Source of the DNA: a virus
Strand: one strand, 5' to 3'
Length of the DNA stretch: 52,115 nt
IMG/VR virus record: IMGVR_UViG_3300034175_000039
Coordinates: 1-52,115 of that record
Made by a program: the position numbers and the translations under genes. The first letter of the stretch is position 1, and the number at the start of each line of letters is the position of its first letter. Under the pieces are notes generated by a model. That model did no database searches. It was not told the DNA's origin and saw nothing but the letters and a program-made list of their open reading frames with translations. Below, piece after piece: positions 12,407-48,146 of the stretch.

Positions 12407-12435
12407 GGAATAACGGTCATAGCGATGGTTGTCAA
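12407..12435 (-). promoter_or_regulatory. Promoter of the repeated TTGAC-N17 family (P1)
   Basis: On the minus strand TTGACA, 17-nt spacer, TATTCC. The spacer ACCATCGCTATGACCGT shares the ACCAT-N4-ATGACC core with other members. The TGA inside TTGACA is the stop codon of the polymerase gene. It would drive the 83-aa gene at 12125-12376. Confidence 0.75.
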
Positions 12436-14471
12436 CCGATAATCAGTTTTTTCGCTTCCGCGATGTAATAATCATAATTCAGATTATCGAAACGAAATGA
12501 CCGCGCGTCATTGCATTCGGCAATCTGCCAACCGGCTTGAATGGCGGTCGTTACGTTGTCGTATTTGGTCTTTGCCTTGGTGCAAACTCGTTCATCCCAT
12601 TGACCATGGGTTTCCGCCATAACGCGGTCGTATTCAGCCTTGGTGACGCGCGGTGCGCGCTTCCACTGACCGATGGCGTGGCCAGCGGGCGGCGGGCTTA
12701 CCTTGACCATGGGAGCGCCGTTCAGCGCCACATAGTAACGCGTGGTGCTTTGGATCGGCACGCCGCCTAGATACAGCTTGGACGCCCGGTCCACCTTAGC
12801 GCGACACATGAAATCGAACGGGTCGCTGTGCGCCCGGATATAGGCGGCCGGATCGATACCGTGGATCATCGCGGCGTTGGCAGCACGAACCGATACGATG
12901 TTTCCAAGGTCTTTATACCAACATGGCGGTGATGCCTTGGAAATGCTTTCCGCATAGTTGAACGGGTCCGGGTGCCAATACGCGCCCTTTTGCTTATAGG
13001 ACGGCGGTTCGTTCTGACCGGGTGGCGTGACCGGCTCTGCGATGTAATTGTTTACGTCCCTAATCCACATACGGTTGTAATCGGCATCTTCCAACTTCAA
13101 GCAACTGAACGCTTCCCATTGTCGGCAAATCGCGGCAGCTTGCGGTTCGTGATCACGATGAATGCGATACGTGATGCCGTCCGTATTCGCTTGGATCAAC
13201 TGTATGGTTGGCACAGCTAGCAACCATTCCGCCAACATGCATATCAACAATTGCCCGTTGATCGGAATGGTCATCGCGTACTTGGGATCGTAAAAGATAC
13301 TGAACTTGTTGTTTGACTGCCCCCATGGTCCGTTATTGGCAAGCTTGTACGTTCCGTTCCATGTAGTGCCTTTTGGATACTCTTTACGCTTCGCCTTAAT
13401 TTGCGGATAGGCTAGGCGGAAAGCGTCACCAAGGTGTTCCGGTGCCAGTTGGTTAGCAATCGCGATGCTTGGATATAGCGCCTCAACATCAATATCGCGG
13501 ATGATCCAATCACCGGACGCAATAAACCGCTGCGACGTAACGGACGCATGAACGCCACCGGTGCCAAAATAGAAATCAAGCCCGCCAACGTTGGCGACTA
13601 GATCAGTGAACACGCCTTTGGTTTTAATAGGTGCGTCCGGATCATCCAAGTCGTCTGGCGTCAGCACTTGCTGTTTCATGAATTCTAGGACGCGTTGGAA
13701 TTCCGGGTTACTGAATTGTATGTATGGAAAGATGATATCTGCTAACGCGATGCGATAACGTGGCGATTGCCGCTTTACCTTACGTCCGGTGCTGCGATCA
13801 TAGCAGACGGCATCGCCTAGCAAATGTTCGAACATTTGCGCGCCAATTTTCACGTCGCTAAAATTCAACGCCTGAATGCCGAATTGTTCGATCAACTCTA
13901 TGCGCAAATTGATCGCGTCCATACTGCAAAACGCAAAGCGTTTCGTTTCCTGAACGTCATGACAATTGTACGGGATCAAATCTTGGTCAACTTGAAGTTG
14001 TGAAAGATTGGTGCCGAATTCAATTGGACTGTCCACAACGGTTGGTGAACGCATATTAATTTGCAAAGCCTTAAGACTTGTCATCTTGGCTTTGTTATCG
14101 AAATGATGGATTTTGAATAGATCGATTTGCGGCGCAAAACGGTCACGATCCCAAATGGTATGACCGAACTTGTCAACGCTGCGAAGAATGGTCATCGCTT
14201 TTTCGTATATCTGTTCGACGCTCGCGAGCGGATTGTGATATAAGAAATGGACAACCGGATAATCAAAGTGAAGGCTGTTGAAACCAATCATCGGGACTTG
14301 CGTTTGTTGAAGATAGTTAAACCATGTCATCAACATTTGACGATCATCGCGATAGTGCGAGATTTCCCACGTCGTCCGCGTGTCGCTGTGCAATAACTCC
14401 GCCGTCAACGTAAAGGCGTTGGGCAGTGTTTCAATGTCGTAAACTACCGCATGATGTAGCGATAAAGTCAC
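12432..14471 (-). CDS. Family B DNA polymerase with 3'-5' exonuclease
   Basis: A 679-aa replicative polymerase with a GTG start. Exonuclease motifs: D12-I-E14 (Exo I), N65-SLHF-D70 (Exo II) and Y168-NCH-D172 (Exo III). Polymerase motifs: GGVHAS near 306, motif A D328-VEALYPSI, motif B K376-LANNGPWG and motif C N429-T-D431-G. Motif C has Asn where most family B enzymes have Asp (DTD), while the second Asp is kept. The C-terminal 130 residues end in a region containing WDERVCTKAKTKYD, a motif echoed in the protein at 17023. It heads a replication operon with ssDNA-binding and nuclease genes. Family B is clear from the LYPSI motif. Confidence 0.9.
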   Translation of the reverse strand: MTLSLHHAVVYDIETLPNAFTLTAELLHSDTRTTWEISHYRDDRQMLMTWFNYLQQTQVPMIGFNSLHFDYPVVHFLYHNPLASVEQIYEKAMTILRSVDKFGHTIWDRDRFAPQIDLFKIHHFDNKAKMTSLKALQINMRSPTVVDSPIEFGTNLSQLQVDQDLIPYNCHDVQETKRFAFCSMDAINLRIELIEQFGIQALNFSDVKIGAQMFEHLLGDAVCYDRSTGRKVKRQSPRYRIALADIIFPYIQFSNPEFQRVLEFMKQQVLTPDDLDDPDAPIKTKGVFTDLVANVGGLDFYFGTGGVHASVTSQRFIASGDWIIRDIDVEALYPSIAIANQLAPEHLGDAFRLAYPQIKAKRKEYPKGTTWNGTYKLANNGPWGQSNNKFSIFYDPKYAMTIPINGQLLICMLAEWLLAVPTIQLIQANTDGITYRIHRDHEPQAAAICRQWEAFSCLKLEDADYNRMWIRDVNNYIAEPVTPPGQNEPPSYKQKGAYWHPDPFNYAESISKASPPCWYKDLGNIVSVRAANAAMIHGIDPAAYIRAHSDPFDFMCRAKVDRASKLYLGGVPIQSTTRYYVALNGAPMVKVSPPPAGHAIGQWKRAPRVTKAEYDRVMAETHGQWDERVCTKAKTKYDNVTTAIQAGWQIAECNDARSFRFDNLNYDYYIAEAKKLIIG

Positions 14472-14486
14472 GCGGTAGTTTCCCGA

Positions 14487-14723
14487 TTAACGTTCGTTCG
14501 GCGACGTGCCATTTGCGGCGGCGAGGATCGCCGGGGCCAATTCCTTAAGGGGTGTGTTCGGCCTTTTGATAAATTCCGGTTCCGCGCCCTTCATGATCGC
14601 TTGCGCCAAAATCAAGCCGTTCGCCATGCCTTGCAGATAGTCGTCAGCAAGAGCGTTGCCAGGCTGGATCGCAACATTGGTCACATCGTCCAACGCCTTA
14701 AGCTTCGTTTCCATGTCAACCAT
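14487..14723 (-). CDS. Small replication-operon protein, unknown function
   Basis: A 78-aa protein. ATG 14723 is placed after GAGAGGAT, a good ribosome site; a longer frame to 14741 is less likely. Helical composition with LPLK and AILAAANG near the C-terminus and no membrane segment. It lies between the ssDNA-binding protein and polymerase genes in the same direction, so a role in replication is possible. Not recognised. Confidence 0.65.
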   Translation of the reverse strand: MVDMETKLKALDDVTNVAIQPGNALADDYLQGMANGLILAQAIMKGAEPEFIKRPNTPLKELAPAILAAANGTSPNER

Positions 14724-14737
14724 GTCGTTCGATCCTC

Positions 14738-14854
14738 TCAATATGGAATGCAGTCGTCAAGATCGTCACCGAACACGCCGGTGACTTTGGTCCCGCCCAT
14801 TCGGCACGGTTCACCGTTAAGTGAACCGCACCGAATACAGGCGGTATTATCGCG
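14738..14854 (-). other. Coding-like +1-frame extension of the DUF2815-like gene
   Basis: Immediately after the stop of the 14847-15884 gene, the +1 frame stays open for 38 residues. They contain a C-x2-C-x7-C pattern (CIRCGSLNGEPC) and end GDDLDDCIPY before a stop at 14738. There is no upstream ATG, GTG or TTG in that frame. The only Met start would be at 14800, giving 20 aa. The two frames join at a C5 run (14854-14858). Either a +1 frameshift makes a longer ssDNA-binding protein with a zinc-knuckle-like tail, or the assembly has a homopolymer error. It fills a 105-bp gap otherwise without a gene. Confidence 0.5.
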
Positions 14855-15884
14855 GGGGCATCATTCCCGGCATTCCCGGTTGCGTCGTCGGTGGTGCCAT
14901 CATGCCGGGCTGTGCGGCCAATGGGGCTGGCATCCCCGCGTTCGCGACGAAATCATGCGCGGGCGGCGGGAGCATCGCCGGTGGCGGCGCTATAGGCGCT
15001 GGCGTCCAAGCCGCGCCGTTCCACCACATTTCTGCGCCGGTCGTTGGATCGCGACCGACATGCGACGGGTCTGATGGGCGTTGCGGCCCGACCGGCGCTA
15101 CGGGCGGCGAAAGCATCGCCGGTGGTGCCATCATGGCGGGCTGTACGGCCATAGGCGGTTGACCGGGCTGCGCCATGCCCGGTTGAGCCATCATGCCCGG
15201 CTGTGCAGCCATGGGAGCCGCGCCAGCGCCCATGCCGGGCATACCGGGTGCGCCGGGCGCTTGGACCGGGGTTGCGCTCGCACCGGCTGGCAGTTGGTGC
15301 TGTGCGCCCTTGAAGATGGCCATGGGATCGATCGCACCTTGCGACTGAATTTCCGTCCCGTAACCGACGAATTCGATACCAAGCGGGTTGATATAAAGAC
15401 CGGGCGTGTGCGTCCGATCAACCGGTACGTTCGCCTTGATATTCAGACCGCACACAACGTAATCACCGCACTTGACCGCATCGCCGGGCAATTGGTCGTA
15501 CTTGCCACCGTTCAGCTTGAACAACGGCGGTGCCATCAATTCGCTACTGATAGCGAGAACGTAGCAACCGGCGTAACCTTCGCGAAGATTGAACGGCTTG
15601 CCTTGGTCATCGATACCGTCGCCATCCTGATACTTCCAAGAGAACTTGGGCGGCGTGCCATTGGGGAACACCGTTGCCGCCTCTTGCGCCATCGCTGGCC
15701 AAATGGCGGCTTGAAATTCCGCCTTGGGAAACGCAACGCCAAGTGACCACTGTTGCACCGGTTGACCGTCCTTTAGGACGACTTCATTTGCACCGGTTGA
15801 CGGGTTCTTGCGCGTCTTGTTCTTGCTCTTGGTCGGGTGCCCCCAAACGATGCGCCCAACCGGGGTTGCGATTTCAATTGCCAT
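14847..15884 (-). CDS. DUF2815-like single-stranded DNA-binding protein
   Basis: A 345-aa protein with ATG 15884 after AGAAAGGATTACACTA. The N-terminal 190 residues (VGRIVWGHPTKSK, FSWKYQDGDG, YVVCGLNIKANV, PGLYINPLGIEFVGYG) match the pattern of phage DUF2815 proteins, gp2.5-like ssDNA-binding proteins with an OB fold. Residues about 195-345 are a low-complexity Pro/Met/Gly/Ala tail, unlike the short acidic tail of typical phage SSBs, with one WWNGAAWTP segment inside. It lies next to DUF2800 and polymerase genes, as in many phage replication modules. Confidence 0.8.
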   Translation of the reverse strand: MAIEIATPVGRIVWGHPTKSKNKTRKNPSTGANEVVLKDGQPVQQWSLGVAFPKAEFQAAIWPAMAQEAATVFPNGTPPKFSWKYQDGDGIDDQGKPFNLREGYAGCYVLAISSELMAPPLFKLNGGKYDQLPGDAVKCGDYVVCGLNIKANVPVDRTHTPGLYINPLGIEFVGYGTEIQSQGAIDPMAIFKGAQHQLPAGASATPVQAPGAPGMPGMGAGAAPMAAQPGMMAQPGMAQPGQPPMAVQPAMMAPPAMLSPPVAPVGPQRPSDPSHVGRDPTTGAEMWWNGAAWTPAPIAPPPAMLPPPAHDFVANAGMPAPLAAQPGMMAPPTTQPGMPGMMPPR

Positions 15885-15898
15885 TAGTGTAATCCTTT

Positions 15899-16984
15899 CT
15901 ACTTCTTCAACACACGTTTTGCACGTTGATCCGCTGTAACACGAATTAGCTTTATGCCGGTTTGTGGACGTTCGGTCAAAGCGTCCAAAACGGCTTGCGA
16001 TCCACCGCGCCGCTTGAATTCAGCCGGGGTTATATGCGAGGGTTTAACGCAATCGATCTTACTGGCCATAGTCAACAACCGCGCGTCAAGACCCGGTTTC
16101 CAACGCGTATTCGCGTATTGGTTTTCCATCGCGTAATTATCGATGACCGCGCCGTTGCGTAGCCGGTGCGCTGCCATTTCTTCTAAGGCGTTCAACTGCG
16201 CTTCAAGCGTTGCCTTGGCGGTTCGAACAACGTCTAGTTCGTACGATAAGGCCGCATCGGGCAATTGATCGTTAAACGCAATGGCAGTCGCATCAATAGC
16301 ATTCATGCGCGCTTTTGTTGCAGCGGGGCAAGATGCGAGCGCGTGGCACCGCCGACACCAACCAAGCCCGGTGCGCAATTCATCGGACGGATTGGTTAAC
16401 GTTGCGTTTATGCGAGCGTAAAGACCGATTAGCGTTGCGTAATCGATAGTCCAAGAGCGGTGTTTCCCGTCCGGGTGATGTGGGCGTGGTTGGTGGATTG
16501 TCATAACGATCATATCGGGTTGAACGCTACGCGTGATGCAATAGCCAATGGCATGCCATATCAGCGTCCAATGCATTTCAGGATCAACCAACGACCAACC
16601 GTATTTCAGGTCGTCCACTCGTAAGACGCTGTTACCGGGTTCGTCCGACGCGATATATTTGATGTGATCAGCCCGCCCGCCAACGCGCCATGCGTCCGTT
16701 CCAAAACTTGTATCAACTTGCATTTCGCCGCAATCTAACGCGGACAAATAGTTATCGACATGTTCCGCCATTTCGGCGGTCATATAGAAACCGTTGCAAG
16801 CTGGCGTGTTGATTAATGAGTGGATCGGAACGCCGTTGAATGCTTGCTGCGCCATCCAATCGGCGGCGGTGCCTTCGTTACGGGCCGTTGGATCAACATC
16901 AACAGCCGGGAAAGCTGGCGACATTAGACGACTTCCATTGCATTCCATTAACCGTGGCAAATTATCAGCAATGACCGTCAACAT
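15899..16984 (-). CDS. DUF2800-like PD-(D/E)XK nuclease (RecB/Cas4-like)
   Basis: A 361-aa protein. It has the GRADHIKY and VDDLKYG blocks of the PD-(D/E)XK nuclease core (Asp and Lys of the D...DxK centre) and a later WCRRCHALASC cluster like the Fe-S cysteines of RecB/Cas4/AddB enzymes. DUF2800 proteins are regularly encoded beside DUF2815 and a DNA polymerase, as here. It probably processes DNA ends during replication or recombination. The C-terminal 60 residues are basic, ending RAKRVLKK. Confidence 0.82.
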   Translation of the reverse strand: MLTVIADNLPRLMECNGSRLMSPAFPAVDVDPTARNEGTAADWMAQQAFNGVPIHSLINTPACNGFYMTAEMAEHVDNYLSALDCGEMQVDTSFGTDAWRVGGRADHIKYIASDEPGNSVLRVDDLKYGWSLVDPEMHWTLIWHAIGYCITRSVQPDMIVMTIHQPRPHHPDGKHRSWTIDYATLIGLYARINATLTNPSDELRTGLGWCRRCHALASCPAATKARMNAIDATAIAFNDQLPDAALSYELDVVRTAKATLEAQLNALEEMAAHRLRNGAVIDNYAMENQYANTRWKPGLDARLLTMASKIDCVKPSHITPAEFKRRGGSQAVLDALTERPQTGIKLIRVTADQRAKRVLKK

Positions 16985-17022
16985 ATGTCGCCAGCTTTCT
17001 AGTTAGTTAAGAGGCTGGCGAG

Positions 17023-17820
17023 TTACCAACGACCATCGCGTTGCATCAACTGCGTCGCATACGTGATCATCGCCGGATTGGTTGCGATATCCGTAATTGC
17101 CGTCAGCGGTGCGACGCCTTGCGGCGCAAACGCGGTGCTGATTTCGTTGGTGATCGATGCGAGATAATCCGCATGCACCAACGGTGCGCCCGCGCCGTCA
17201 CGCTTCGTCATCTGACCGGACAAATGTTGCATGAACTGTGCGAAATCCAAAGCGCCGGTCGGCGCAGCGGGCGGCGGTGGCGGCGCGGGTTCAGGCACCG
17301 GCATAGGCGGTACAGGCATTGCGACCGGCTGCGCAACCGGCACGGGGATCGGCGGCGGGTTAAACGCAGTTGTGGCACCGTCCACCGGCAACGCCGTGGC
17401 GGCAGGTGCGACGGGCAAAGGGGGCGGCGTCATCGGTTGCATCGGCGGGATTGGCATTGCCACCGGCTGCGCAACCGGCGCGGGGATCGGCGGCGCAAGC
17501 GTCGCGCGCAATTGCGCTTCCACGGCACTGACCGTCGCTTCGTCCACGCCGCGACGCTTGCGCCACATACCGGCTTCGGTCGTCGCCTTCGTTTTCGCGT
17601 GAATGCGTTCATCCCACGGCAAACCGGATGCGTCGGTTGCGGGTGCGGCGGCATTCACGGGACCGGCGTCGTCGTCATCGCCACCGCCGTTTATGGGCAT
17701 TGCCGGCACCGGAACAGCGACGGGAACGGGCGACCGCGTGGTTGCGACGCCATCGGGAAGATTGGCTAGGACCATCGCAATTTGCGACGCGGAGCCTTTC
17801 AGCATCAATGTAATTTCCAT
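17023..17820 (-). CDS. Pro/Ala-rich replication-associated protein
   Basis: A 265-aa protein. ATG 17820 follows TTTGGAG; the longer frame from 17835 uses TTG. A short N-terminal domain (residues 1-25) is followed by Pro/Val/Ala-rich linkers flanking a conserved-looking block near residue 66 onward (LPWDERIHAKTKATTEAG, then WRKRRGVDE). The same kind of WDxRIHxxxK block occurs in many phage replication-region proteins and at the end of the polymerase here. C-terminal about 70 residues are helical. It could be a scaffold for the replisome; function unproven. Confidence 0.65.
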   Translation of the reverse strand: MEITLMLKGSASQIAMVLANLPDGVATTRSPVPVAVPVPAMPINGGGDDDDAGPVNAAAPATDASGLPWDERIHAKTKATTEAGMWRKRRGVDEATVSAVEAQLRATLAPPIPAPVAQPVAMPIPPMQPMTPPPLPVAPAATALPVDGATTAFNPPPIPVPVAQPVAMPVPPMPVPEPAPPPPPAAPTGALDFAQFMQHLSGQMTKRDGAGAPLVHADYLASITNEISTAFAPQGVAPLTAITDIATNPAMITYATQLMQRDGRW

Positions 17821-17929
17821 CGGTGTAATCTCCAAAGAGGCAGAAAATCTGCTATATTGCGATAACGAAGGGCTTGCGCGATGGCAATAGAAATTTTACA
17901 CCATGGTCAAATTAGGGGCTATCAGCATC

Positions 17930-18541
17930 ATGACAGATTACGTTATTCCTTGCGACGCGTTTGCCCGGCTATCGAATATCCTACGCGTGATCCCGGCTGA
18001 ATGTGACGATCATTTCCGCTCCATCCGCATCGATAATGGGGTGATTGTGTCATGTAATCGTACGGTCATGGCGGTCGAAAATATCGGTGCTGTCGCTGGC
18101 ATCATTCATATCATTGCGCATCCCGGTTTGATCGAACAATGCCGAAAAGAAGCACCGTTTGCGAGTACGCTAACGATCACGGTCAATGATGCTTTGAAAT
18201 TCGCAGTAGCCAAAACGACGCTTGGTTACGTTCATCCGGGCAATTGTTGCTTATGGTCCGACGCCGCTACCGATTTTGATCGGTGGCGTTCTATTGCAAT
18301 GGCGACGAAAGAGCCCGCCAAGGTTAATCGGGGCGGCATGTTTTGGGATACCGAACATATCACCAATTTAGCAGCGTCAAGCCCGTCCGGTCGTCTGGTG
18401 TTCGAAGAAACGATAGACGCGCAAGGGCGTCCGACCGTGGTGCGTGATATCAACGATTACAATTGGTTTGGTATCTTCAATCCGTATTCACTAGCGGATA
18501 ATTACAATCCGGCAACTCTGCCGACATGGATGACGGCATGA
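17930..18541 (+). CDS. Hypothetical protein, sliding-clamp-like appearance
   Basis: A 203-aa protein. ATG 17930 is chosen because AGGGG lies twelve bases upstream; an ATG at 17903 has no ribosome site. The N-terminal half alternates strands and short helices (LSNILRVIP, SIRIDNGVIVSCNRTVMAVENI), reminiscent of clamp-type proteins. It is the first gene of the + strand metabolism cluster and lies divergently from the replication operon. The clamp idea is only an impression; a structure prediction would decide it. Confidence 0.6.
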   Translation: MTDYVIPCDAFARLSNILRVIPAECDDHFRSIRIDNGVIVSCNRTVMAVENIGAVAGIIHIIAHPGLIEQCRKEAPFASTLTITVNDALKFAVAKTTLGYVHPGNCCLWSDAATDFDRWRSIAMATKEPAKVNRGGMFWDTEHITNLAASSPSGRLVFEETIDAQGRPTVVRDINDYNWFGIFNPYSLADNYNPATLPTWMTA

Positions 18542-18957
18542 CCCCGGTTGTATGCAGAATAAAACATGATCCCGAAAACGCCGTTTATGCGGATTGTGTT
18601 CGCGCTTGTATCGCATCGGTGATGGATATGGATGCGGGTGATGTTCCGCATTTTTATCACGACAATTGCGATGGCTTGACCGGATTTGGTCGGATTAATG
18701 AGTTTCTAGCACCGTTCGGACTTGCGGCATTTAGCGTGGCGTATGATGGTGCCTATTCAATGGATGACGTACTAGCGTTGATGGGAGAACAAAACGCCGC
18801 AACGGTTTATCTGTTATTCGGTCAAACCGCGTACGGTGATCATGTGGTGGTATGTCGCGGCGGCGAATGCATCCATGACCCGGCGTGGTTCCGTTCGCCG
18901 TTGTTCAAAGCGGCGCAGGCTGGTTATTGGATCGTTATGGTGTTGGCTAAGTGTTAA
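18538..18957 (+). CDS. C39-like cysteine-peptidase-fold phage protein
   Basis: A 139-aa protein, ATG 18538 in an ATGA overlap. It contains ADCVRACIASVMDMDAGDVP (an N-terminal Cys followed by a helix) and a later GDHVVVCRGGECIHDP. This layout resembles the papain-like C39 family, with Cys and His in the expected order and an Asp near residue 116. Phages often carry such proteins as hypotheticals; proteolysis has not been shown for this type. No signal peptide. Confidence 0.6.
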   Translation: MTPVVCRIKHDPENAVYADCVRACIASVMDMDAGDVPHFYHDNCDGLTGFGRINEFLAPFGLAAFSVAYDGAYSMDDVLALMGEQNAATVYLLFGQTAYGDHVVVCRGGECIHDPAWFRSPLFKAAQAGYWIVMVLAKC

Positions 18958-19715
18958 TCGGTAACGGTCAATTCCTGCTAGGTGATTGCCTAGAATTGAT
19001 GCGCCACATTCCTGATCAATCGGTTGATATGGTACTGTGCGATCTACCGTACGGTACAACCGCATGCAAATGGGATCAAGTCATACCGTTTGAACCATTG
19101 TGGTCGCATTACTGGCGAGTTTGCAAACCGAATGCCGCAGTAGTGTTGACAGCTTCGCAGCCGTTCACGTCAGCGTTGGTCATGTCGCAACCGAAAGCAT
19201 TTAAATGTGAATGGATTTGGGAAAAAAATATAGGTTCAAATTTTGCACAAGTAAAATATATGCCCATGAAAGAACATGAAAACATTTGCGTGTTTAGTCG
19301 CAATACACCATTGTATAACCCAATCATGGAACAAAGGAATGGTTCCGGTCTCACAAGAATAGGTGAAATATTACCACCTAAACCTAGTATTCAGCATTTC
19401 GGCCCTTCAATGAGATCGCAATATGATGTGAAACCCCGTTTAGAAAGTCGTATTCCACGTTCTGTTCAAAAGTTCAATGTCGTACCTCGCAACGGCGGAG
19501 GTCTAATTCACCCAACGCAAAAGCCCGTCGCGCTGTTCGACTATCTCATTCGCACGTACACCAATCCCGGCGATCTAGTGCTAGACAATTGCGCCGGTTC
19601 AGGGACCACCGCCATTGCGGCGGAAGCGTCCGGTCGCCGCTGGTTGTGCATGGAGCGCGATCCTAGCTATTACTATGCGGCTATCGGTCGCGTGTGGAAA
19701 GCGTGTTATTCGTGA
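18951..19715 (+). CDS. DNA methyltransferase (N6-adenine/N4-cytosine, beta class)
   Basis: A 254-aa enzyme with GTG start overlapping the previous stop. Motif IV CDLPYG (residues 30-35) precedes motif I DNCAGSGTT (near 210), the beta-class order, and HPTQKPVALFDYLI lies between them. It would transfer a methyl group from AdoMet to adenine N6 or cytosine N4 in DNA. No restriction enzyme gene is adjacent, so protection of phage DNA from host restriction is the likely purpose. It overlaps the helicase gene by GTGA. Confidence 0.9.
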   Translation: MLIGNGQFLLGDCLELMRHIPDQSVDMVLCDLPYGTTACKWDQVIPFEPLWSHYWRVCKPNAAVVLTASQPFTSALVMSQPKAFKCEWIWEKNIGSNFAQVKYMPMKEHENICVFSRNTPLYNPIMEQRNGSGLTRIGEILPPKPSIQHFGPSMRSQYDVKPRLESRIPRSVQKFNVVPRNGGGLIHPTQKPVALFDYLIRTYTNPGDLVLDNCAGSGTTAIAAEASGRRWLCMERDPSYYYAAIGRVWKACYS

Positions 19716-21364
19716 TACAGCTTCGCCCGGACCAATTCGACCTTGATCAACGCATGGATGCCAGTTTCAACGCCGGTGCCGGTAATGTCTTGGGGGTTCT
19801 GCCAACCGGTGGCGGCAAGTCAGTCATCGTGTCTGAACGCACGTTACGACGACACTTGCTAGGATCGGTTCAATTCATCGGCGCGCATCGTGTCGAACTG
19901 ACCGGACAAATGTCTATGCACGTTGCACGGCGTGGCATCAAACATCGTATCATCGCACCTAAAGCCGTGGTCAACGCCATTGTTGCCGAACACCGCGACG
20001 AATTCAATGGTCACTCATTCGTCAATCCTAGCAGCAATTGCAGCGTTGGCAGTGTCGATACCTTGCTCGCACGATCCGATGAACTGGCGGCATGGGCACG
20101 TCAAGTTGACCATTGGACGATGGATGAAGCGCATCACTTGTTGCGGCTCAACAAATGGGGTCGGTCGGTTGCGCTGTTCCCTAACGCGCGCGGCGAAGGA
20201 TGGACGGCAACGCCCCAACGGGCGGATGGCATGGGGCTTGGCAGTCACGCCGATGGTATCTTTGACGATATGGTCGTCGGGCCAGATATGCGTCACTTGA
20301 TCAACATCGGTGCGCTTACCGATTACGAAATAGCTATTCCAGAAAGCGACTTTCAGATTGATGACGCTGACCTAGCGCCGTCCGGGGATTGGTCAACGGC
20401 TCGCATGCGCGACGCGTCCAAGAAATCTCATATCGTTGGTGACGTGGTTAAAGAATACGTCGCGCGAGCGTATGGCAAGCGGTTTATTTGTTTCGCGACT
20501 GACGTTGAAACGGCGAGCGAAATTGCACAACGCTTTACCGATATCGGTATTCCAGTCGCGGCGGTATCTGCAAAGACACCAAGTGATCTACGCCGGGAGT
20601 ATATCAAACGGTTTCGGGCTGGTGCGCTTTGGGGGTTGATCAACGTCGATCTGTTTGGTGAAGGGTTCGACGTGCCAGCGGTCGAAGTCGTCATAATGGC
20701 ACGTCCGACCGCATCGCTTGCGGTTTATCTTCAACAATTCGGTCGTGCGCTGCGTACGATGTTCGGCAAGCTTTACGGCTTGGTCATCGATCATGTCAGC
20801 AACTGGAAGCGCCACGGCTTTCCCGATAAATCGCATTATTGGACGCTTGATCGTCAGGACCGTCGTGCCAAACGCGAGCGTGACCCGGAAGAAATCGAGT
20901 TGACGGCGTGCCGCAATTGCAGTCGTCCATATGAGCGGTTCCACGCATGTTGTCCGCACTGTGGCGCTATTCCACCGCTTCCCGATCCCGCTAGTCGTAC
21001 GTTGCAGCAGGTGGACGGCGATTTGTTCTTGATTGATCGTGATCGTGCGGCGATGATGCGCAAGGCAACCGAACTGGAAAGCCCGGCAGCGGCGAAACAA
21101 CGCGTTGGTGCTGACATGGGCGATATGATCGGCACGGCGGCGCTTAATCGCTCTATAGAGAAGCATGCCGCGCAACAGCGGCTTTCCGGTGCCATTGCCC
21201 AATGGGCAGGCATACAGCGCGCCAAGGGGCGTCCTGACGACCAATCCTATCGTCGCTTCTACATAACCACCGGCATTGACGTTCTAAGCGCATTGTCGGC
21301 TGAACGGACCCGCCAAGAGTTTGAAGCTTTGGCGGTCAAGGTTGAGGGATGGTGCGCGCGATGA
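19712..21364 (+). CDS. SF2 DEAD/DEAH-type helicase
   Basis: A 550-aa protein; GTG 19712 forms a GTGA overlap and is preferred to 19694. Motif I LPTGGGKS (residues 30-37), motif II DEAH (138-141), motif III WTATP near 165 and motif VI QQFGRALR near 340 define a RAD3/UvrB-type superfamily 2 helicase. Past the motor domain is a zinc ribbon CRNC...CPHCG (about 388-406), then a helical tail. Such helicases accompany DUF2815/DUF2800 replication modules and act in replication or recombination. Confidence 0.9.
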   Translation: MIQLRPDQFDLDQRMDASFNAGAGNVLGVLPTGGGKSVIVSERTLRRHLLGSVQFIGAHRVELTGQMSMHVARRGIKHRIIAPKAVVNAIVAEHRDEFNGHSFVNPSSNCSVGSVDTLLARSDELAAWARQVDHWTMDEAHHLLRLNKWGRSVALFPNARGEGWTATPQRADGMGLGSHADGIFDDMVVGPDMRHLINIGALTDYEIAIPESDFQIDDADLAPSGDWSTARMRDASKKSHIVGDVVKEYVARAYGKRFICFATDVETASEIAQRFTDIGIPVAAVSAKTPSDLRREYIKRFRAGALWGLINVDLFGEGFDVPAVEVVIMARPTASLAVYLQQFGRALRTMFGKLYGLVIDHVSNWKRHGFPDKSHYWTLDRQDRRAKRERDPEEIELTACRNCSRPYERFHACCPHCGAIPPLPDPASRTLQQVDGDLFLIDRDRAAMMRKATELESPAAAKQRVGADMGDMIGTAALNRSIEKHAAQQRLSGAIAQWAGIQRAKGRPDDQSYRRFYITTGIDVLSALSAERTRQEFEALAVKVEGWCAR

Positions 21365-21609
21365 TTAACGTAGCCGCTTTTAATGAGTTTGCTTGCCGTG
21401 TATGCGGCAGGGATGCGTTTGTTTCGTTTATTGAACCAACAGCGCACGAAGATTTGGAACACGGCAAAGCACATTTTCAAGCGTGGTGCATTAAATGTTG
21501 CCCCGGTCATCTTTGGCTTAACGAACCCGGTGAAGGATTAATGTGTAAATATTGTTCGGATCAACCACCGTATGATTATTACGATTACGAACCGGACGAC
21601 TGGCAATGA
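21361..21609 (+). CDS. Small zinc-ribbon-like protein
   Basis: An 82-aa protein; ATG 21361 overlaps the helicase stop (ATGA). It has CRVC (residues 12-15), CIKCC (about 43-47) and CKYC (about 63-66), enough to bind one or two zinc ions, and an acidic Tyr/Asp-rich C-terminus (YDYYDYEPDDW). Translationally coupled to helicase and DUF4031 genes. Function unknown. Confidence 0.7.
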   Translation: MINVAAFNEFACRVCGRDAFVSFIEPTAHEDLEHGKAHFQAWCIKCCPGHLWLNEPGEGLMCKYCSDQPPYDYYDYEPDDWQ

Positions 21610-21989
21610 CCGTCTATGTGGACGATATGAAAGCGCCGTTTGGTCGCTATGTCATGTGTCATTGTTGGGCGGACAGCCGCGCAGAATTGTTCGCGATGAT
21701 GGAATTGATTGGCGTCCAGACGAAGTGGTTTCAGCAACCGCCAAAGGCGAGTTGGGAACACTTCGATATTACAATGTCAAAAAGAAAGCTAGCTATCCAA
21801 CATGGCGCAGTCGAAACGGACCGATATGCGCCGCTTGAACATACCGCGCGATTGGGAGTGCTTGCCGCCGCGTCGGTCGGTGATCTTGACGGCATGGTGC
21901 GCGCTGTTCGCAAAATGTGTATGGTCGGAATGATCCGGTTGGAGCGTGCGGGCGTCGGCGCGCTCTATGACACGCGGCACGAACAATGA
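21606..21989 (+). CDS. DUF4031 protein
   Basis: A 127-aa protein matching the DUF4031 pattern: MTVYVDDMKAPFGRYVMCHC at the N-terminus, IGVQTKWFQ, HFDITMSKRKLAIQHGAVE. DUF4031 proteins are short, widespread in phages and actinobacteria, and biochemically uncharacterised. Beyond residue 75 there is an extra 50-residue helical region (ARLGVLAAASVGDLDGMVRA). ATGA overlaps on both sides. Confidence 0.85.
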   Translation: MTVYVDDMKAPFGRYVMCHCWADSRAELFAMMELIGVQTKWFQQPPKASWEHFDITMSKRKLAIQHGAVETDRYAPLEHTARLGVLAAASVGDLDGMVRAVRKMCMVGMIRLERAGVGALYDTRHEQ

Positions 21990-22330: not shown

Positions 22331-22341
22331 AAGGATAGAAC

Positions 22342-23370: not shown

Positions 23371-23371
23371 A

Positions 23372-23671
23372 ATGGCAGCGCAAGAGCGGCACGGTGATCG
23401 CGTCAAGGTGTCCATCCTTGCGGCCGGGCTGGCGCTGTGGCGCTGCAATCCGGGGTCGGTCAGCGCCCGTGCCATCGGTCAGCGCATCGGCATGTCGCAC
23501 AGCGCCGTGCTATACCATTATAAGTCGTCGGACGCGCTTAAAACGGCCATTGCGGCGGAAGCGGTTCGCATCGGTGATAAGGTAATCATCCCCATGTTGA
23601 TCGCATCACGCCATCCCGCCGCCGACACGCTTAACGCGAATGATCGTCGGCGGTTTTTGGCGGACTGTTAA
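23372..23671 (+). CDS. Minimal TetR-type HTH DNA-binding protein
   Basis: A 99-aa protein if started at ATG 23372; GTG 23363 is an alternative. Residues about 18-60 form a TetR_N-like helix-turn-helix (ILAAGLALW...SARAIGQRIGMSHSAVLYHYKSSDAL). The usual ligand-binding C-terminal domain (another 100 or so residues) is missing, leaving one short helical tail. As the only obvious TetR-type regulator in the genome it is a candidate for binding the dyad in the repeated promoters. That link is inference. Confidence 0.75.
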   Translation: MAAQERHGDRVKVSILAAGLALWRCNPGSVSARAIGQRIGMSHSAVLYHYKSSDALKTAIAAEAVRIGDKVIIPMLIASRHPAADTLNANDRRRFLADC

Positions 23672-23868: not shown

Positions 23869-23895
23869 TTTCACCACTCCGTTACTGTTGTGATG

Positions 23896-23924
23896 TTTAT
23901 AATGGCCATTGCGATGGTCGTCAA
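23896..23924 (-). promoter_or_regulatory. Promoter of the repeated family (P2)
   Basis: Minus strand TTGACG, 17-nt spacer, TATAAA, the best -10 of the set. The spacer ACCATCGCAATGGCCAT gives a dyad GACCAT-N4-ATGGCC. The stop codon of the 56-aa gene at 23921-24091 lies inside TTGACG. It drives 23668-23868. Confidence 0.82.
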
Positions 23925-24091: not shown

Positions 24092-24126
24092 GACACTTAT
24101 CCTTTAGCGCGTTATTGCGCCGGTCG

Positions 24127-24155
24127 ATTATCGGTCATGTTTTGGCCAATGTCAA
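24127..24155 (-). promoter_or_regulatory. Promoter of the repeated family (P3)
   Basis: Minus strand TTGACA, 17-nt spacer, GATAAT, close to consensus at both boxes. The spacer differs from the GACCAT-N4-ATGRCC group but keeps ATGACC at its end. The TGA of TTGACA is the stop codon of the gene at 24152-24391. It drives the 56-aa gene. Confidence 0.78.
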
Positions 24156-24900: not shown

Positions 24901-24914
24901 GGTCAGTTATCCTC

Positions 24915-25480: not shown

Positions 25481-25502
25481 TGGTCATCCTTCGGTTATGC
25501 TT

Positions 25503-25531
25503 GTGCTATTTGCACGCTTTCAACACGTCAA
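25503..25531 (-). promoter_or_regulatory. Promoter of the repeated family (P4), diverged spacer
   Basis: Minus strand TTGACG, 17-nt spacer, TAGCAC. The spacer lacks the shared ACCAT dyad, so regulation may differ. It drives the operon from 25480 down to 24152. A + strand promoter is divergent about 30 bp away. Confidence 0.65.
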
Positions 25532-25590: not shown

Positions 25591-25599
25591 TGACGCATA

Positions 25600-25797
25600 A
25601 TGCTTTTAGACCACGAACCACCTAAGCCATTGCTTAACCTCAAAAAATACGCTGAACGAATGGGGATTACGCGGCAGGCGGTCCACTATCAGCTATCGAA
25701 GGGGCAATGCCTCGTACCGCCAATCGTCGGCAGTAAACCGCCTAAATGGCGTGTTGTTGACGTTGATGGTGCGCTAGCGCCACTTCGTGATCGATGA
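25600..25797 (+). CDS. Small HTH DNA-binding protein
   Basis: A 65-aa protein with a helix-turn-helix (LKKYAERMGITRQAVHYQL, residues 14-32), then GQCLVPPIVGSKPPKWRVVDVD, the layout of excisionase-like and MerR-like small phage regulators. It is the first gene before the primase-helicase (ATGA overlap). It could be an origin-binding or regulatory factor. Confidence 0.75.
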   Translation: MLLDHEPPKPLLNLKKYAERMGITRQAVHYQLSKGQCLVPPIVGSKPPKWRVVDVDGALAPLRDR

Positions 25798-30059: not shown

Positions 30060-30088
30060 TTCCTATCAGTCGTCGCAATGGTCGTCAA
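30060..30088 (-). promoter_or_regulatory. Promoter of the repeated family (P5)
   Basis: Minus strand TTGACG, 17-nt spacer ACCATTGCGACGACTGA, TAGGAA. It lies entirely within or directly after the 3' end of the 30066-30278 gene: the -35 encodes part of that protein's LDDHCDD tail and the spacer holds its stop codon. Drives 29466-30032. Confidence 0.75.
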
Positions 30089-31078: not shown

Positions 31079-31251
31079 TGGTTGTCCTTTATGGTTTCCA
31101 TGGAAACTACGCTATCAAGTCGTGCGCGCCAATATTCTTGACCATCGCGATTGAAGATGATCCAACCGCCCGGCGCATCATTGAAAAAGCTATCAGCTTC
31201 AATGATGCGTAAATCTTGACCGTATTTCATTTCTATTCGAAACTTAAACAT
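31075..31251 (-). CDS. Small hypothetical protein (58 aa)
   Basis: Read directly from the minus strand: starts MFKFRIEMKYGQDL, contains PGGWIIFNRDGQEYWRARLD, ends TIKDNQ. ATG 31251 follows AAAGGAACCGGCA and the gene ends in an ATGA overlap with the exonuclease. The Tyr/Trp-rich beta pattern suggests a small single-domain protein. Function unknown. Confidence 0.78.
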   Translation of the reverse strand: MFKFRIEMKYGQDLRIIEADSFFNDAPGGWIIFNRDGQEYWRARLDSVVSMETIKDNQ

Positions 31252-31411
31252 TGCCGGTTCCTTTCGCAGCGTCCTTGCGGTCGCATAGGTGTTCGATAGT
31301 TTGTGCGAACGTTGGTTTGAAGCCGAATTGTCCGGTCAGCGCGTTTTGCGCGTCGGTCAGCTTGGCGAACACCGTGCCGCTAAGTGATACGGTGCGGTCA
31401 TTCCGTTTCAT
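31244..31411 (-). CDS. Small protein, ribbon-helix-helix-like (55 aa)
   Basis: Read directly from the minus strand: RTVSLSGTVFAKLTDAQNAL then FGFKPTFAQTIEHLC. One beta strand followed by two helices is the layout of Arc/MetJ-type DNA-binding proteins. Overlaps its neighbours by 8 and 14 bp. Possible early transcription regulator; family match not tested. Confidence 0.65.
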   Translation of the reverse strand: MKRNDRTVSLSGTVFAKLTDAQNALTGQFGFKPTFAQTIEHLCDRKDAAKGTGNV

Positions 31412-31589
31412 CATTCATGCTCTCAACTGGCGGTGTGATCATCCATGCTTGGCGCATGTCGCATATCGACGTAACGAACCGGCGTAGCTGCCATGGCATG
31501 TCGTCATAGGTGCCGGGCGGTTCAGGCGGCGGAACGAATAAGTCGGCGTTGGTTACTGGATTTAGCTCGGCTTGCGATGCGCGCACCAT
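31398..31589 (-). CDS. Hypothetical protein (63 aa)
   Basis: Start chosen at ATG 31589 to limit overlap with the upstream gene to 28 bp; ATG 31613 is an alternative. The sequence (ADLFVPPPEPPGTYDDMPWQL) has a Pro-rich middle and acidic end SMNDETE. No recognised domain. Confidence 0.5.
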   Translation of the reverse strand: MVRASQAELNPVTNADLFVPPPEPPGTYDDMPWQLRRFVTSICDMRQAWMITPPVESMNDETE

Positions 31590-34973: not shown

Positions 34974-34979
34974 GTGATC

Positions 34980-35008
34980 GGTATAATGGTCATTGCGATG
35001 GTCGTCAA
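34980..35008 (-). promoter_or_regulatory. Promoter of the repeated family (P6), leaderless type
   Basis: Minus strand TTGACG, 17-nt spacer ACCATCGCAATGACCAT, TATACC, then six bases and ATG. Its spacer is nearly identical to those of P2 and P9. Drives the early block from 34973 downward and is divergent to the terminase genes. Confidence 0.82.
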
Positions 35009-40751: not shown

Positions 40752-40916
40752 TTAGATCGTCGGGGTGGTGCTGCGCCCCGGTTGATCGCCCGCCCGACGT
40801 GCTACGGTCATTGCACGTCGGGCGGTTGCTAAACGACGCTGGCGTTGGTGATCCTGCCATGCCGCGATATGACGGAAATGATAGCCGTCAAAGTATGATG
40901 CTTCCGCGTAGTCCAT
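40752..40916 (-). CDS. Small hypothetical protein (54 aa), opposite strand in head region
   Basis: Read directly from the minus strand: begins MDYAEASYFDGYHFRHIAAW, then QDHQRQRRLATARRAM and a basic Arg-rich end. It is 24 bp after the 42-aa gene and could be cotranscribed with it. ATG 40916 lacks a clear ribosome site, and its 3' half overlaps a hairpin (40791-40824), so confidence is moderate. Confidence 0.5.
   Translation of the reverse strand: MDYAEASYFDGYHFRHIAAWQDHQRQRRLATARRAMTVARRAGDQPGRSTTPTI
40791..40824. terminator. Hairpin, possible terminator
   Basis: CGCCCGACGTGC pairs with GCACGTCGGGCG over 12 bp with a ten-base loop, 43 bp after the scaffold stop. No U-tract. On the minus strand it falls inside the 54-aa frame, where it encodes the ARRAMTVARRAG repeat, so the symmetry may be partly coding. 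Confidence 0.45.
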
Positions 40917-41098: not shown

Positions 41099-41127
41099 GA
41101 TATACCGCCCGGCCCGGTAGTTGTCAA
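41099..41127 (-). promoter_or_regulatory. Promoter of the repeated family (P7), GC-rich spacer
   Basis: Minus strand TTGACA, 17-nt spacer, TATATC. The boxes fit, but the spacer is GC-rich (CCGGGCCGGGCGG) and lacks the GACCAT dyad, so it may be unregulated by the factor reading the others. Drives 40940-41068. Confidence 0.7.
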
Positions 41128-41294
41128 AGTGATTGTCAACGAATGCGATAATTTTTGTCGGTCGCATGACGCCGCTTGACCGTCTCGGCGCTTATGGATT
41201 ATGGATTTGTGCGATAGCCAAGGGTTGGATGACCGCGCGGCGCTTTAGGTCGGATGACCTTGCCAAACCTCATTCAACTGAAAAGGGCGTCCTC

Positions 41295-43767: not shown

Positions 43768-44238
43768 TTAGATTTCGCGGAACACCAATGCCGTCGAACC
43801 TTCGGCGGGCGTGCCCTTCAACGTCTTCGCCATCGCGGCGTCCACATCCACAGCGAAATACTTGGCCGTCACGTCGGTTTCCGGTTCCGTCGTCGGCGTC
43901 TGACCGACGACCGCGCCGTTCGCGTCTTTGATATCGGTCGTCTTGAACACGGTGTTGCCCGCCGCATCCTTGCGCGTGACGACCGCCTTGCGGTTGGCGT
44001 TGCTGACGACGCTGGAGAGGCTGGCGGCGGTCTTGTTCTTGACGCCGAACGACATGCCCTTGGCGGTCAGGCTGGCGAACGGATAGATCGAAACGGAACC
44101 GCGCTTGCTCTTACGTTCCGGCATCGCGATCGCGTTGGTGACAGCGGTGAATACCGGTTCGACACGCGGCTTTTTGCCATCGTTGGCGAAGGCGGCGGCG
44201 CTGGCGGCGGTCAGTGTGGCAAGTCGAAGATTACGCAT
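43768..44238 (-). CDS. DUF7303-like protein on the opposite strand of the head operon
   Basis: A 156-aa protein. ATG 44238 follows AAGGAATGACCAAC; longer starts at 44247 and 44274 have poorer sites. The middle (SIYPFASLTAKGMSFGVKNK then SSVVSNANRKAV) resembles the small phage DUF7303 domain (YPF.dl.vGdsF.v). The N-terminus MRNLRLATLTAASAAAFAND is hydrophobic. It has its own promoter (P8) and terminator, making a free-standing minus-strand unit inside late genes. Function unknown. Confidence 0.65.
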   Translation of the reverse strand: MRNLRLATLTAASAAAFANDGKKPRVEPVFTAVTNAIAMPERKSKRGSVSIYPFASLTAKGMSFGVKNKTAASLSSVVSNANRKAVVTRKDAAGNTVFKTTDIKDANGAVVGQTPTTEPETDVTAKYFAVDVDAAMAKTLKGTPAEGSTALVFREI

Positions 44239-44270: not shown

Positions 44271-44299
44271 CCATTAGCGGTGTTTCAAATGGTCGTCAA
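44271..44299 (-). promoter_or_regulatory. Promoter of the repeated family (P8)
   Basis: Minus strand TTGACG, 17-nt spacer ACCATTTGAAACACCGC, TAATGG. It keeps TTGACGACCAT, but the second half of the dyad is lost. Drives 43768-44238. Confidence 0.7.
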
Positions 44300-46127: not shown

Positions 46128-46309
46128 TCACCGTCTGTAAATCGACGTTCCGGTCGCATAAACTGCCGATCAATAGTGTGTTGAATTTGCGTTAATGTGT
46201 ATTCAGCAGTCGTTGTATCCGGGTCATCGTTCCATTCTTTTATGAGTCCTTCGATTTGGTTAACAAGGCGAGATAATGCCGTATATCCGGCGTTTGGTGC
46301 TTTAGCCAT
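46124..46309 (-). CDS. Small hypothetical protein (61 aa)
   Basis: ATG 46309 lies within the last codons of the upstream gene (8-bp overlap). Helical (YTALSRLVNQIEGLIKEWND, YTLTQIQHTIDRQF). Ends four bases into the convergent minor head gene. Function unknown. Confidence 0.68.
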   Translation of the reverse strand: MAKAPNAGYTALSRLVNQIEGLIKEWNDDPDTTTAEYTLTQIQHTIDRQFMRPERRFTDGD

Positions 46310-46568
46310 CGCTTGAAATCTCACTCACATAAACCGACATGGGATTGATTGGCGGAACGCCGATAATCTGGATGACGATGTTCGCGCCTGCCGCAATCGC
46401 AGCGCGTTCCGCATCGGTTGGTTCCCATGCGGTAGTCATGGTCGGAAAATCGCCTTCAACGTTCTTGTCGGTCGTCTGACCGTAGTTGACGGCTAAACCG
46501 CGCCAGCCTTGCGCCTTTCCGGCAATGATCGTGCGTGCGGGATCGCCCGGTGGAATGACAGATTGCAT
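46302..46568 (-). CDS. Small conserved-type phage protein (88 aa)
   Basis: WEPTDAERAAIAAGANIVIQI and IIGVPPINPMSVYV recall a short phage family with 'p...E...l..Gg.I.l.v.g..hPP' features. The N-terminal half is less ordered. Part of the AAA+/VWA operon. Unknown function. Confidence 0.68.
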   Translation of the reverse strand: MQSVIPPGDPARTIIAGKAQGWRGLAVNYGQTTDKNVEGDFPTMTTAWEPTDAERAAIAAGANIVIQIIGVPPINPMSVYVSEISSDG

Positions 46569-46570: not shown

Positions 46571-47698
46571 TTATTCTTTCTCTATTTTGACCGGTAGCTT
46601 ATCCGGCACGACATCGGGCAATAAAAACAGGGGATCGTTACCGCTATGATTTACGCTCAACACCGGCACGTAAAATTCATTTGGTCCGCATCGGTGGTCG
46701 TGATCGAATGAATTACTTGCCGATCCTTGTGATGCCCATATTGAACGCGTTTCGGGAACCGACGAACAGGCGGCAAAGCTGAACCGGCGCAAGAACGACG
46801 GATGACCAAGTGCGAACATCAAATCGCTAAGATTGAGCCGTTCACCGTTTTCTTTCAATTTAACCGCCAATTGATATTTCGCACGTCCGCCGCTTACCGA
46901 CGTATCGGTTGCGACAATGGCGCATGAATAGCCCGCGTTCTCCATTAGATCGATCATGGCACCGATCAACGCGGCACGCATGATGGCACTTTCCGCGTTG
47001 ACGTGACCGTTACAGCCGATTTCCACAAAGAACGTCACGACTTTGCGACCGGGCGATTTGGGGCGTCGCACCATATGCGCGGGATCACCGGACAACATGC
47101 GCCCGACGTTGACCGTGCCGCCCGCCACAGCGGCCCGGCGCTGGCGTACGCGGGGACTATCGACGGATAGCCGCTCCATGGCGTCTAGGGCGCGCTCAAC
47201 GCCGTCTGGCCAGCCCTTGCGGGCAAGATCGATAGCGTCCGCCATACGCCGCGTGCCGCGCCAATCACCGTCGTCAATTTCCCATCCCGAACGGTTCGGA
47301 TCAGTCGATTGCGAGGGCGCTAGACTTTCGATGTAATCGGTAAATTTGCCAAGGCTGGAAAAACCAAAGAACGCAGACACGTTTTGGTCGGCAAAGTGGT
47401 TGTGATAAGTCGCGTCATCGCCATAGATGGCAGACGGCGTGCTGTTCGATTGTCGCGTTACGTTGCTTTCAAGCAAGTGCGCCAACAACTCACTAAACGC
47501 GTCATCGGCATCGCTGCTAGCCGCTGGCATCGGATCATTGACCGTTTGCACCATCACGCCAACTAAGCCGCGAAGCTTACTGACTTGATCAGTGCTTAAG
47601 CGGTCAAAGGTCCATCGCTTTTCGTGCTTGTTGAACAGCCCGCCCATGCTGCGCAGCAAGTCGCGGTGTTCGAACGTGCGTCCGGTGGCGGTGATCAT
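46571..47698 (-). CDS. VWA-like (DUF7192/CobT-like) partner of AAA+ ATPase
   Basis: A 375-aa protein. The N-terminal TGRTFEHRDLLRSMGGLFNK, then WTFDRLS is a small module used by several phage ATPases and helicases. A linker follows; from about residue 210, TFFVEIGCNGHVNAESAIMR and LMENAGYSCAIVATDTSVSGG give a von Willebrand A-like fold whose metal site (DxSxS) looks altered. Adjacent to a MoxR/CobS-like ATPase, it resembles MoxR-VWA chaperone pairs that remodel protein complexes. Confidence 0.7.
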   Translation of the reverse strand: MITATGRTFEHRDLLRSMGGLFNKHEKRWTFDRLSTDQVSKLRGLVGVMVQTVNDPMPAASSDADDAFSELLAHLLESNVTRQSNSTPSAIYGDDATYHNHFADQNVSAFFGFSSLGKFTDYIESLAPSQSTDPNRSGWEIDDGDWRGTRRMADAIDLARKGWPDGVERALDAMERLSVDSPRVRQRRAAVAGGTVNVGRMLSGDPAHMVRRPKSPGRKVVTFFVEIGCNGHVNAESAIMRAALIGAMIDLMENAGYSCAIVATDTSVSGGRAKYQLAVKLKENGERLNLSDLMFALGHPSFLRRFSFAACSSVPETRSIWASQGSASNSFDHDHRCGPNEFYVPVLSVNHSGNDPLFLLPDVVPDKLPVKIEKE

Positions 47699-48087
47699 TT
47701 AGGTGTGGACCAAGTGTAACGATGACCATGTTGTGCGCTTGCATATCCTTGTGCAACTGCGCATCTATCTCTGTCAAAAAATTGATCTATATAGCTTTCA
47801 CCATCCCAATAGGTCGCGCCACTGATATAGCCATTATGCATGCCAATGATGCGTTGAATAGTGTGATTGCTAAATCGTTGCGCTTCCTCTTTTGTACGTG
47901 GCGGATTGGCGAGATAAAACGTGTCATTGATACGTGTGCCGTCCACAATAGCCTCTTGTCTGCCGCCAAATGGACCGACATTAACGGCTTCGCGGGGCCG
48001 TTGAAACCATAGCACTTTGTAACGTTTGGCGATTGGTTTATCGCAAACTATACATCGGGGTCGGTTAAGATCGATACTACGTGCCAT
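47695..48087 (-). CDS. Zinc-ribbon-containing hypothetical protein (130 aa)
   Basis: Start at ATG 48087 or 48093; GAG lies upstream of both. CIVCDKPIAKRYKVLWF gives one CxxC at the N-terminus; the rest is Tyr/Arg-rich and ends WSTPK. Sits between the ATPase and the VWA-like gene, with promoter P9 directly upstream, so the VWA gene can be made independently of the ATPase. Confidence 0.65.
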   Translation of the reverse strand: MARSIDLNRPRCIVCDKPIAKRYKVLWFQRPREAVNVGPFGGRQEAIVDGTRINDTFYLANPPRTKEEAQRFSNHTIQRIIGMHNGYISGATYWDGESYIDQFFDRDRCAVAQGYASAQHGHRYTWSTPK

Positions 48088-48117
48088 AATCATAATCTCA
48101 AGAATTGTGCAACAACT

Positions 48118-48146
48118 ATCCTAATGGTCATCGCAATGGTCGTCAA
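48118..48146 (-). promoter_or_regulatory. Promoter of the repeated family (P9)
   Basis: Minus strand TTGACG, 17-nt spacer ACCATTGCGATGACCAT, TAGGAT. Its spacer nearly matches P6 and P2. The stop codon of the AAA+ ATPase gene is the TGA inside TTGACG. Drives 47695-48087 and downstream genes. Confidence 0.82.

What the first reader, a model, noticed from the sequence alone, without database searches (positions are those of the whole stretch)
12407..48146. A phage-wide regulon: near-identical promoters on the minus strand
Nine minus-strand sites have TTGAC(A/G), exactly 17 bp, then a -10-like box, each just before a small gene or operon: 12407, 23896, 24127, 25503, 30060, 34980, 41099, 44271 and 48118. 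In five of these (12407, 23896, 30060, 34980, 48118) the spacer is also conserved as ACCAT(C/T)GC-like sequence. In four of those five it ends in ATGRCC or ATGACC; 30060 keeps only the first half. Spacer conservation is not needed for sigma factor binding. This resembles the stoperator or operator families of mycobacteriophages and suggests one regulator acting at many scattered sites.
Basis: partly seen in the sequence, partly recalled or inferred. Interest (0 to 1): 0.72.

Follow-up and report, generated by a model that had tools for sequence, protein, structure and literature searches.

The report
Tandem-repeat operators inside phage promoters
This uncultured phage and its relatives place near-identical promoters in front of scattered small-gene operons, each carrying a short sequence repeated every 12 bases between its RNA-polymerase contact boxes, which probably lets one phage regulator switch all these operons together; the genes that could encode the regulator are known but untested.

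Summary
Of the nine sites, four share a near-exact TTGACRACCATYGCDATGRCC-ATTA block, one (30088) is degenerate and one (44299) partial. The other three share only loose sigma-70-type boxes. All are on the minus strand and start small-gene operons.

A relative (G001) has eight copies and two more (G020, L133) have one each. Between orthologous window and G001 sites the 17-bp spacer is 85% identical, the -10 box 54% and upstream flanks 29% (chance). So the spacer is constrained in its own right.

The spacer is not a palindrome or a stoperator. It is a direct repeat with a 12-bp period: GACCAT-N6-GACCAT-N6-GATCAY, running from the -35 edge to about +1. Four other relative classes carry unrelated or re-phased half-sites in the same place, and 12 is the best-scoring period in every one.

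Best explanation: host-sigma promoters overlapped by tandem operators for a phage regulator, most likely a repressor. Favoured candidate: the conserved Cox/BldC-like winged-helix protein at 25600-25797. That this protein binds here is inference. A conserved short TetR-like protein and a host regulator remain possible; the RHH-like protein is unlikely because relatives lack it.

The parts
12407..12435 (-). operator-promoter, strong copy: TTGACAACCATCGCTATGACCGTTATTCC, upstream of gene 12125-12376
   Evidence: exact match to core pattern; score 49 bits versus shuffled maximum 10.7 (the matrix was built partly from this site)
23896..23924 (-). operator-promoter, strong copy, upstream of gene 23668-23868
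   Evidence: syntenic copy in G001 at 26509 and in L133 at 5593
30060..30088 (-). operator-promoter, degenerate second half-site (GACTGA), upstream of genes 29466-30032 and 29211-29447
   Evidence: 2 mismatches; orthologous G001 site 32458 is canonical
34974..35008 (-). operator-promoter with all three half-sites (GACCAT, GACCAT, GATCAC), heading the long small-gene array; predicted leaderless start at 34973
   Evidence: 60 bits; orthologous G001 site 39295 has the same leaderless geometry
48118..48146 (-). operator-promoter, strong copy, upstream of genes 47695-48093, 46571-47698 and 46302-46568
   Evidence: orthologous G001 site 54173
44271..44299 (-). partial copy (first half-site only) upstream of gene 43768-44238
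   Evidence: orthologous G001 site 49404 reads GACCGT-TTGAAC-GATCAT-TAGAGA
24127..24155 (-). sigma-70-like promoter (TTGACA-17-GATAAT) without the operator; not a member
   Evidence: 11 of 12 matches; no spacer conservation
25503..25531 (-). weak promoter-like site without the operator; not a member
41099..41139 (-). promoter TTGACA-17-TATATC preceded by a 12-bp tandem TTGACAATCACT/TTGACAACTACC; different from the core family, possible variant
25600..25797 (+). Cox/BldC-like winged HTH protein (65 aa), favoured candidate regulator
   Evidence: phrog_575 Cox-like excisionase and repressor E=6.8e-4; a homolog upstream of primase in most relatives; predicted fold closest to BldC-DNA and RdfS
23390..23671 (+). 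short TetR-N-like protein, alternative candidate regulator
   Evidence: PF00440 E=6.4e-4, below the curated cut-off; conserved in relatives
31244..31414 (-).
   Evidence: no Pfam or PHROG match; absent from all relatives

Best explanation
These are host sigma-70-type promoters (TTGACG, 17-bp spacer, TAnAnn) whose spacer doubles as a tandem operator. Two half-sites (GACCAT), with a third (GATCAY) at the start site in the best copies, lie head to tail every 12 bp, a little over one helical turn, from the -35 edge across the spacer to about +1. A phage-encoded DNA-binding protein binds the repeats cooperatively, blocks RNA polymerase, and so turns the scattered minus-strand small-gene operons down together. 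The favoured candidate is the Cox/BldC-like winged-helix protein encoded just upstream of the primase (25600-25797). Shown: the repeated sites, their promoter position, the spacer conservation, the 12-bp repeat and its recurrence with other half-sites in relatives. Inferred: transcription from the sites, repression rather than activation, and the identity of the regulator.
For: Exact repeated sites in the window; eight copies in G001, all on the minus strand, plus single copies in G020 and L133. Orthologous window/G001 sites: spacer 85% identical, -10 54%, upstream flank 29%, so neither recent duplication nor sigma alone explains it. Direct repeat at period 12 is the top period, none of 2000 column permutations as good (0.0002 of 5000). 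GAYCAY pairs at distance 12 on the G001 minus strand: 17, against 6 at 24 and 2 or fewer at all other distances 6-25. Linker-changed, half-site-kept variant at G001 49404. Four further classes share the 12-bp period with other half-sites or phase: G011 class, L135, G010, G007, each permutation P 0.007 or below. Exact motif in none of 84,980 prokaryote species genomes, favouring a phage-encoded factor. The sites overlap the polymerase footprint on an optimal 17-bp spacer; classical MerR activators need 19-20 bp (PMC5859096), which favours repression. The candidate is conserved, its family is annotated excisionase/transcriptional regulator in PHROGs, its predicted fold is nearest BldC and RdfS, and such proteins bind direct repeats about one turn apart (PMC7498355, PMC5859096). 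No tyrosine integrase in the window and no serine integrase in the window or four relatives, so an excision role is unlikely.
Against: The candidate HTH is also conserved in relatives without a detected 12-bp family (G014, G015, P106B). Its recognition helix does not co-vary clearly with the half-site: window and G001 differ there yet share the operator. No operator lies in the candidate's own upstream region in the window, so there is no sign of autoregulation. The known Cox/Apl spacing is 10-11 bp and BldC repeats are 9 bp, not 12. Foldseek E-values are weak (0.03; probability about 1). Permutation tests treat related sites as one consensus.
Confidence: 0.55

Rival explanations
1. Same operators and promoters, but the regulator is the short TetR-like protein encoded at 23390-23671, another DNA-binding protein conserved in the relatives.
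For: Conserved in the relatives compared; located beside the 23924 site; recognition helix nearly identical in window, G011 and L137, which share the ACCATCGC half-site core.
Against: TetR dimers normally bind palindromes, and the inverted-repeat score of the sites is lower than the direct-repeat score (0.63 versus 0.86). G010 has a similar helix and a different half-site.
Confidence: 0.15
2. The operator is read by a host transcription factor that the phages co-opt, as CtrA is by other alphaproteobacterial phages.
For: CtrA control of alphaproteobacterial phages is established (PMC9437464); the nearest isolated relatives infect Rhizobium and Sinorhizobium; half-sites differ between subclades, which may have different hosts.
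Against: CtrA boxes (TTAA-N7-TTAA) are not enriched. The exact 20-25 bp motif is in none of 84,980 species genomes, although a degenerate host operator would escape that test.
Confidence: 0.13
3. The sites are strong early promoters shaped only by host RNA polymerase, or recently copied promoter cassettes, with no regulator.
For: Promoter and gene can travel together: a 120-aa gene with this promoter sits at three non-syntenic loci in G001, G020 and L133. In G001, leader similarity extends towards the ribosome-binding site.
Against: The spacer is more conserved than the -10 (0.85 versus 0.54) and flanks are at chance. Relatives keep a 12-bp repeat with other letters. Sigma reads the spacer little.
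Confidence: 0.13
4. The regulator is an activator that binds the repeats to help a weak -10 (no final T in most copies).
For: -10 boxes are poor (TAGAGC, TAGGAT).
Against: The sites lie inside the polymerase footprint, where activators other than the MerR type rarely act, and the spacer is an optimal 17 bp rather than the 19-20 bp of MerR promoters (PMC5859096).
Confidence: 0.1

Closest known systems
Apl of phage 186 and Cox of P2 (direct-repeat excisionase/repressor proteins)
   Same: Operators are direct repeats about one helical turn apart overlapping early promoters; the candidate regulator is a small winged-helix protein of this kind (PMC7498355).
   Different: Spacing is 12 bp, not 10-11; many scattered promoters rather than one switch region; no integrase found.
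BldC of Streptomyces
   Same: Head-to-tail binding on direct repeats at many promoters; nearest solved structure to the predicted candidate (PMC5859096).
   Different: BldC is a cellular developmental regulator with 9-bp AT-rich repeats.
Cluster A mycobacteriophage stoperators
   Same: A phage-wide family of similar sites oriented with transcription whose sequence differs between related phages (PMC6550527).
   Different: Stoperators are single asymmetric 13-14 bp sites, mostly away from promoters; here the sites are promoter-embedded direct repeats.
CtrA-bound promoters of alphaproteobacterial phages
   Same: Repeated-half-site motifs in phage promoters of alphaproteobacterial phages (PMC9437464).
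   Different: TTAA-N7-TTAA is absent or not enriched here.

Membership tests
Mycobacteriophage stoperators | short asymmetric site, single copy per location | tested here: not met
   sites are 12-bp direct repeats
Mycobacteriophage stoperators | most sites not associated with promoters | tested here: not met
   all five window sites and the eight G001 sites above 28 bits start with TTGAC and lie just upstream of a minus-strand gene
[quoted passage not shown]
   all strong copies lie on the strand of the downstream gene
Cox/Apl-type direct-repeat operators | direct repeats spaced about one helical turn | tested here: met
   period 12, permutation P below 0.001 in four of five classes and 0.007 or below in all; the exact spacing differs from 10-11 bp
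Cox/Apl-type direct-repeat operators | a cognate small winged-helix protein encoded by the phage | tested here: inconclusive
   a small winged-helix protein of this kind is encoded; that it is the cognate one was not tested
Cox/Apl-type direct-repeat operators | the protein binds the repeats and represses the promoter | not testable with these tools
   needs binding and reporter assays
Cox/Apl-type direct-repeat operators | the protein also acts as excisionase with an integrase | tested here: not met
   no tyrosine integrase in the window, no serine integrase in the window or four relatives
CtrA-regulated phage promoters | enriched TTAA-N7-TTAA boxes | tested here: not met
MerR-type spacer operators | palindrome in a 19-20 bp spacer | tested here: not met
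   spacer 17 bp; inverted-repeat score below direct-repeat score
sigma-70 promoters | TTGACA-like -35, 16-18 bp spacer, TATAAT-like -10 | tested here: inconclusive
   -35 and spacing good, -10 weak in most copies; no transcript data

The most novel reading that the evidence does not exclude
Phages of this Rigallicvirus-like group, with no integrase found, use a fast-diverging tandem-operator code: each subclade's regulator reads its own half-site at a fixed 12-bp period inside the promoter spacer, and the code is carried by mobile promoter-gene cassettes. The operator type may then set which co-infecting phages can shut off each other's early genes, an immunity-group logic without lysogeny.
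Probability: 0.15. Interest if true: 0.8.

Novelty: new variant of a known kind. Interest (0 to 1): 0.55.

Why it matters
No description of regulation in this group of phages turned up in the papers searched here. The finding offers a concrete, testable regulon (site list, half-site, period, two candidate genes) and a natural series of related phages in which half-site letters change while the 12-bp layout stays. That is a clean system for asking how a regulator and many scattered operators change together, and for finding early-gene cassettes by their shared promoter.

Tried and rejected
Palindromic operator: lower score than the direct repeat. Stoperator: sites are at promoters. CtrA control: boxes not enriched. 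RHH protein 31244 as regulator: not conserved. Host-genome origin: exact motif absent from species genomes. Near DNA match to phage records: none for 20000-44000. Co-variation of the HTH or TetR recognition helix with the half-site: inconclusive. P106B and X2_24 sites: best period 11 (P=0.01), different letters, not counted as the same class. L158 family: no significant period. L074/G008, G014 and G015: no such family found. The untargeted repeat count in upstream regions was noisy for single genomes, including the window (3 regions at period 12), and only showed the signal clearly in G001, G010, G011 and G019.

Full report
What was checked. TTGAC(A/G) by itself is common in this window, and a generic promoter scan over 12000-31000 gives no more sites than shuffled sequence, so the boxes alone carry little weight. 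The spacer does: GACRACCATYGCDATGRCC matches exactly at four places and with two mismatches at a fifth, all on the minus strand, and the pattern read backwards matches nowhere. The real family in this window is therefore 12407, 23896, 34980 and 48118, with 30060 as a weak copy and 44271 as a half copy. Sites 24127, 25503 and 41099 are not members.

Relatives. The window is a 52,115-base virus record related to Rhizobium phages P106B and RHph_X2_24 (DNA polymerase about 57% identical). One related contig, G001 (large terminase 78-79% identical), has eight copies, again all on the minus strand, and G020 and L133 have one each. Four window sites have positional counterparts in G001 (23924/26509, 30088/32458, 35008/39295, 48146/54173), by comparing the gene maps. 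Over these pairs the -35 is 96% identical, the spacer 85%, the -10 54%, and the 34 bases upstream 29%, which is chance. A sigma factor alone would not make the spacer better kept than the -10, and a recent copy would not leave the flanks random.

The shape of the site. Counting the first T of TTGAC as 1, the G001 copies read GACCAT (6-11), six bases, GACCAT (18-23), six bases that are the -10, and GATCAY (30-35). This is a direct repeat with period 12. On the G001 minus strand, GAYCAY pairs occur 17 times at distance 12, 6 times at 24, and at most twice at any other distance from 6 to 25. In a column-permutation test the period of 12 scored 0.86, with 1 in 5000 permutations as good at any period. 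The best inverted repeat scores 0.63. The variant G001 49404 changes the linker and keeps the half-sites, as expected if the half-sites are what is read.

A recurring layout. In a wider set of relatives found by terminase and primase, the exact spacer is absent but other promoter families appear. TTGACCATCGCAACAACCATCGCTATAAC is shared by G011 and several contigs; TTGACCATCGCGATTATCAACGC is in L135; TTGACACATTATTTGACA in G010; AACTCTTGCACCAACCGTTGC in G007. In each, period 12 is the highest-scoring direct-repeat period (0.85, 0.75, 0.85, 0.67; permutation P 0.007 or below), as it is in the window class (0.84). The half-site letters and their phase relative to the -35 differ. P106B with X2_24 give 11 (P=0.01) and L158 gives no clear period, so the layout is widespread but not universal. 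These families were found by eye and clustering before being tested, so the P values describe the repeat within each family, not an unbiased survey.

What it does. The sites sit where polymerase sits, on an optimal 17-bp spacer, at the head of small-gene operons on one strand. That placement is typical of repressors (established knowledge), and MerR-type activation needs a 19-20 bp spacer (PMC5859096). The most economical reading is a tandem operator for a cooperative repressor that lowers these operons together. Transcription, timing and direction of control were not measured here.

Which protein. Two small DNA-binding proteins are conserved across the relatives: a 65-aa HTH encoded immediately upstream of primase, and a short TetR-N-like protein. 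The first matches Cox-like and excisionase-type families, and its predicted fold (mean pLDDT 81) is nearest BldC on DNA and the RdfS excisionase. Apl and BldC, proteins of that kind, bind direct repeats about one turn apart, and Apl represses promoters that way (PMC7498355, PMC5859096); RdfS is described in PMC11963761. No tyrosine integrase was found in the window and no serine integrase in the window or four relatives, so a purely regulatory role is plausible. Against this, the gene is also present where no 12-bp family was seen, and its recognition helix does not track the half-site. The RHH-like protein is unique to this window.

Mobility. The same 120-aa gene (63-84% identical) with the same promoter lies after DNA polymerase in G001, between the TetR-like gene and the HTH in L133, and between structural genes in G020. 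Promoter and gene seem to move as a unit, like early-gene cassettes that arrive already under common control.

Standing of the claims. Sites, strand, conservation and 12-bp repeat: shown. Operator function: inferred from conservation and layout. Repression and the regulator's identity: inferred, with rivals listed.

Noticed in passing
window 41099-41139: Tandem TTGACAATCACT/TTGACAACTACC with period 12 just upstream of a small minus-strand gene; resembles the G010 class more than the core family.
   Followed up: partly
window 35008 and G001 39295: Start codon falls at position 36, so the mRNA would be leaderless, in two orthologous positions whose encoded proteins look unrelated by eye.
   Followed up: partly
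G001 15328, G020 7103, L133 5537: One 120-aa gene with the operator-promoter occurs at three non-syntenic loci.
   Followed up: yes
L158: A separate six-copy promoter family around CGGGAATTATGCGACAACAGTTGCAGGCAATCACGCC, with no significant repeat period.
   Followed up: partly
G015 50564, 51650, 51939: A repeated leader GGAGCCCTCTAGGCGGCTCTACATACGGAGTAACCGAC stands before three small genes.
   Followed up: no
window 40778-40834: Strong inverted repeat (GCCCGACGTGC...GCACGTCGGGC) between convergent genes, terminator-like.
   Followed up: no
window 28178-29005: PAPS-reductase-like gene, shared only with G010 and X2_24 among the relatives compared.
   Followed up: no
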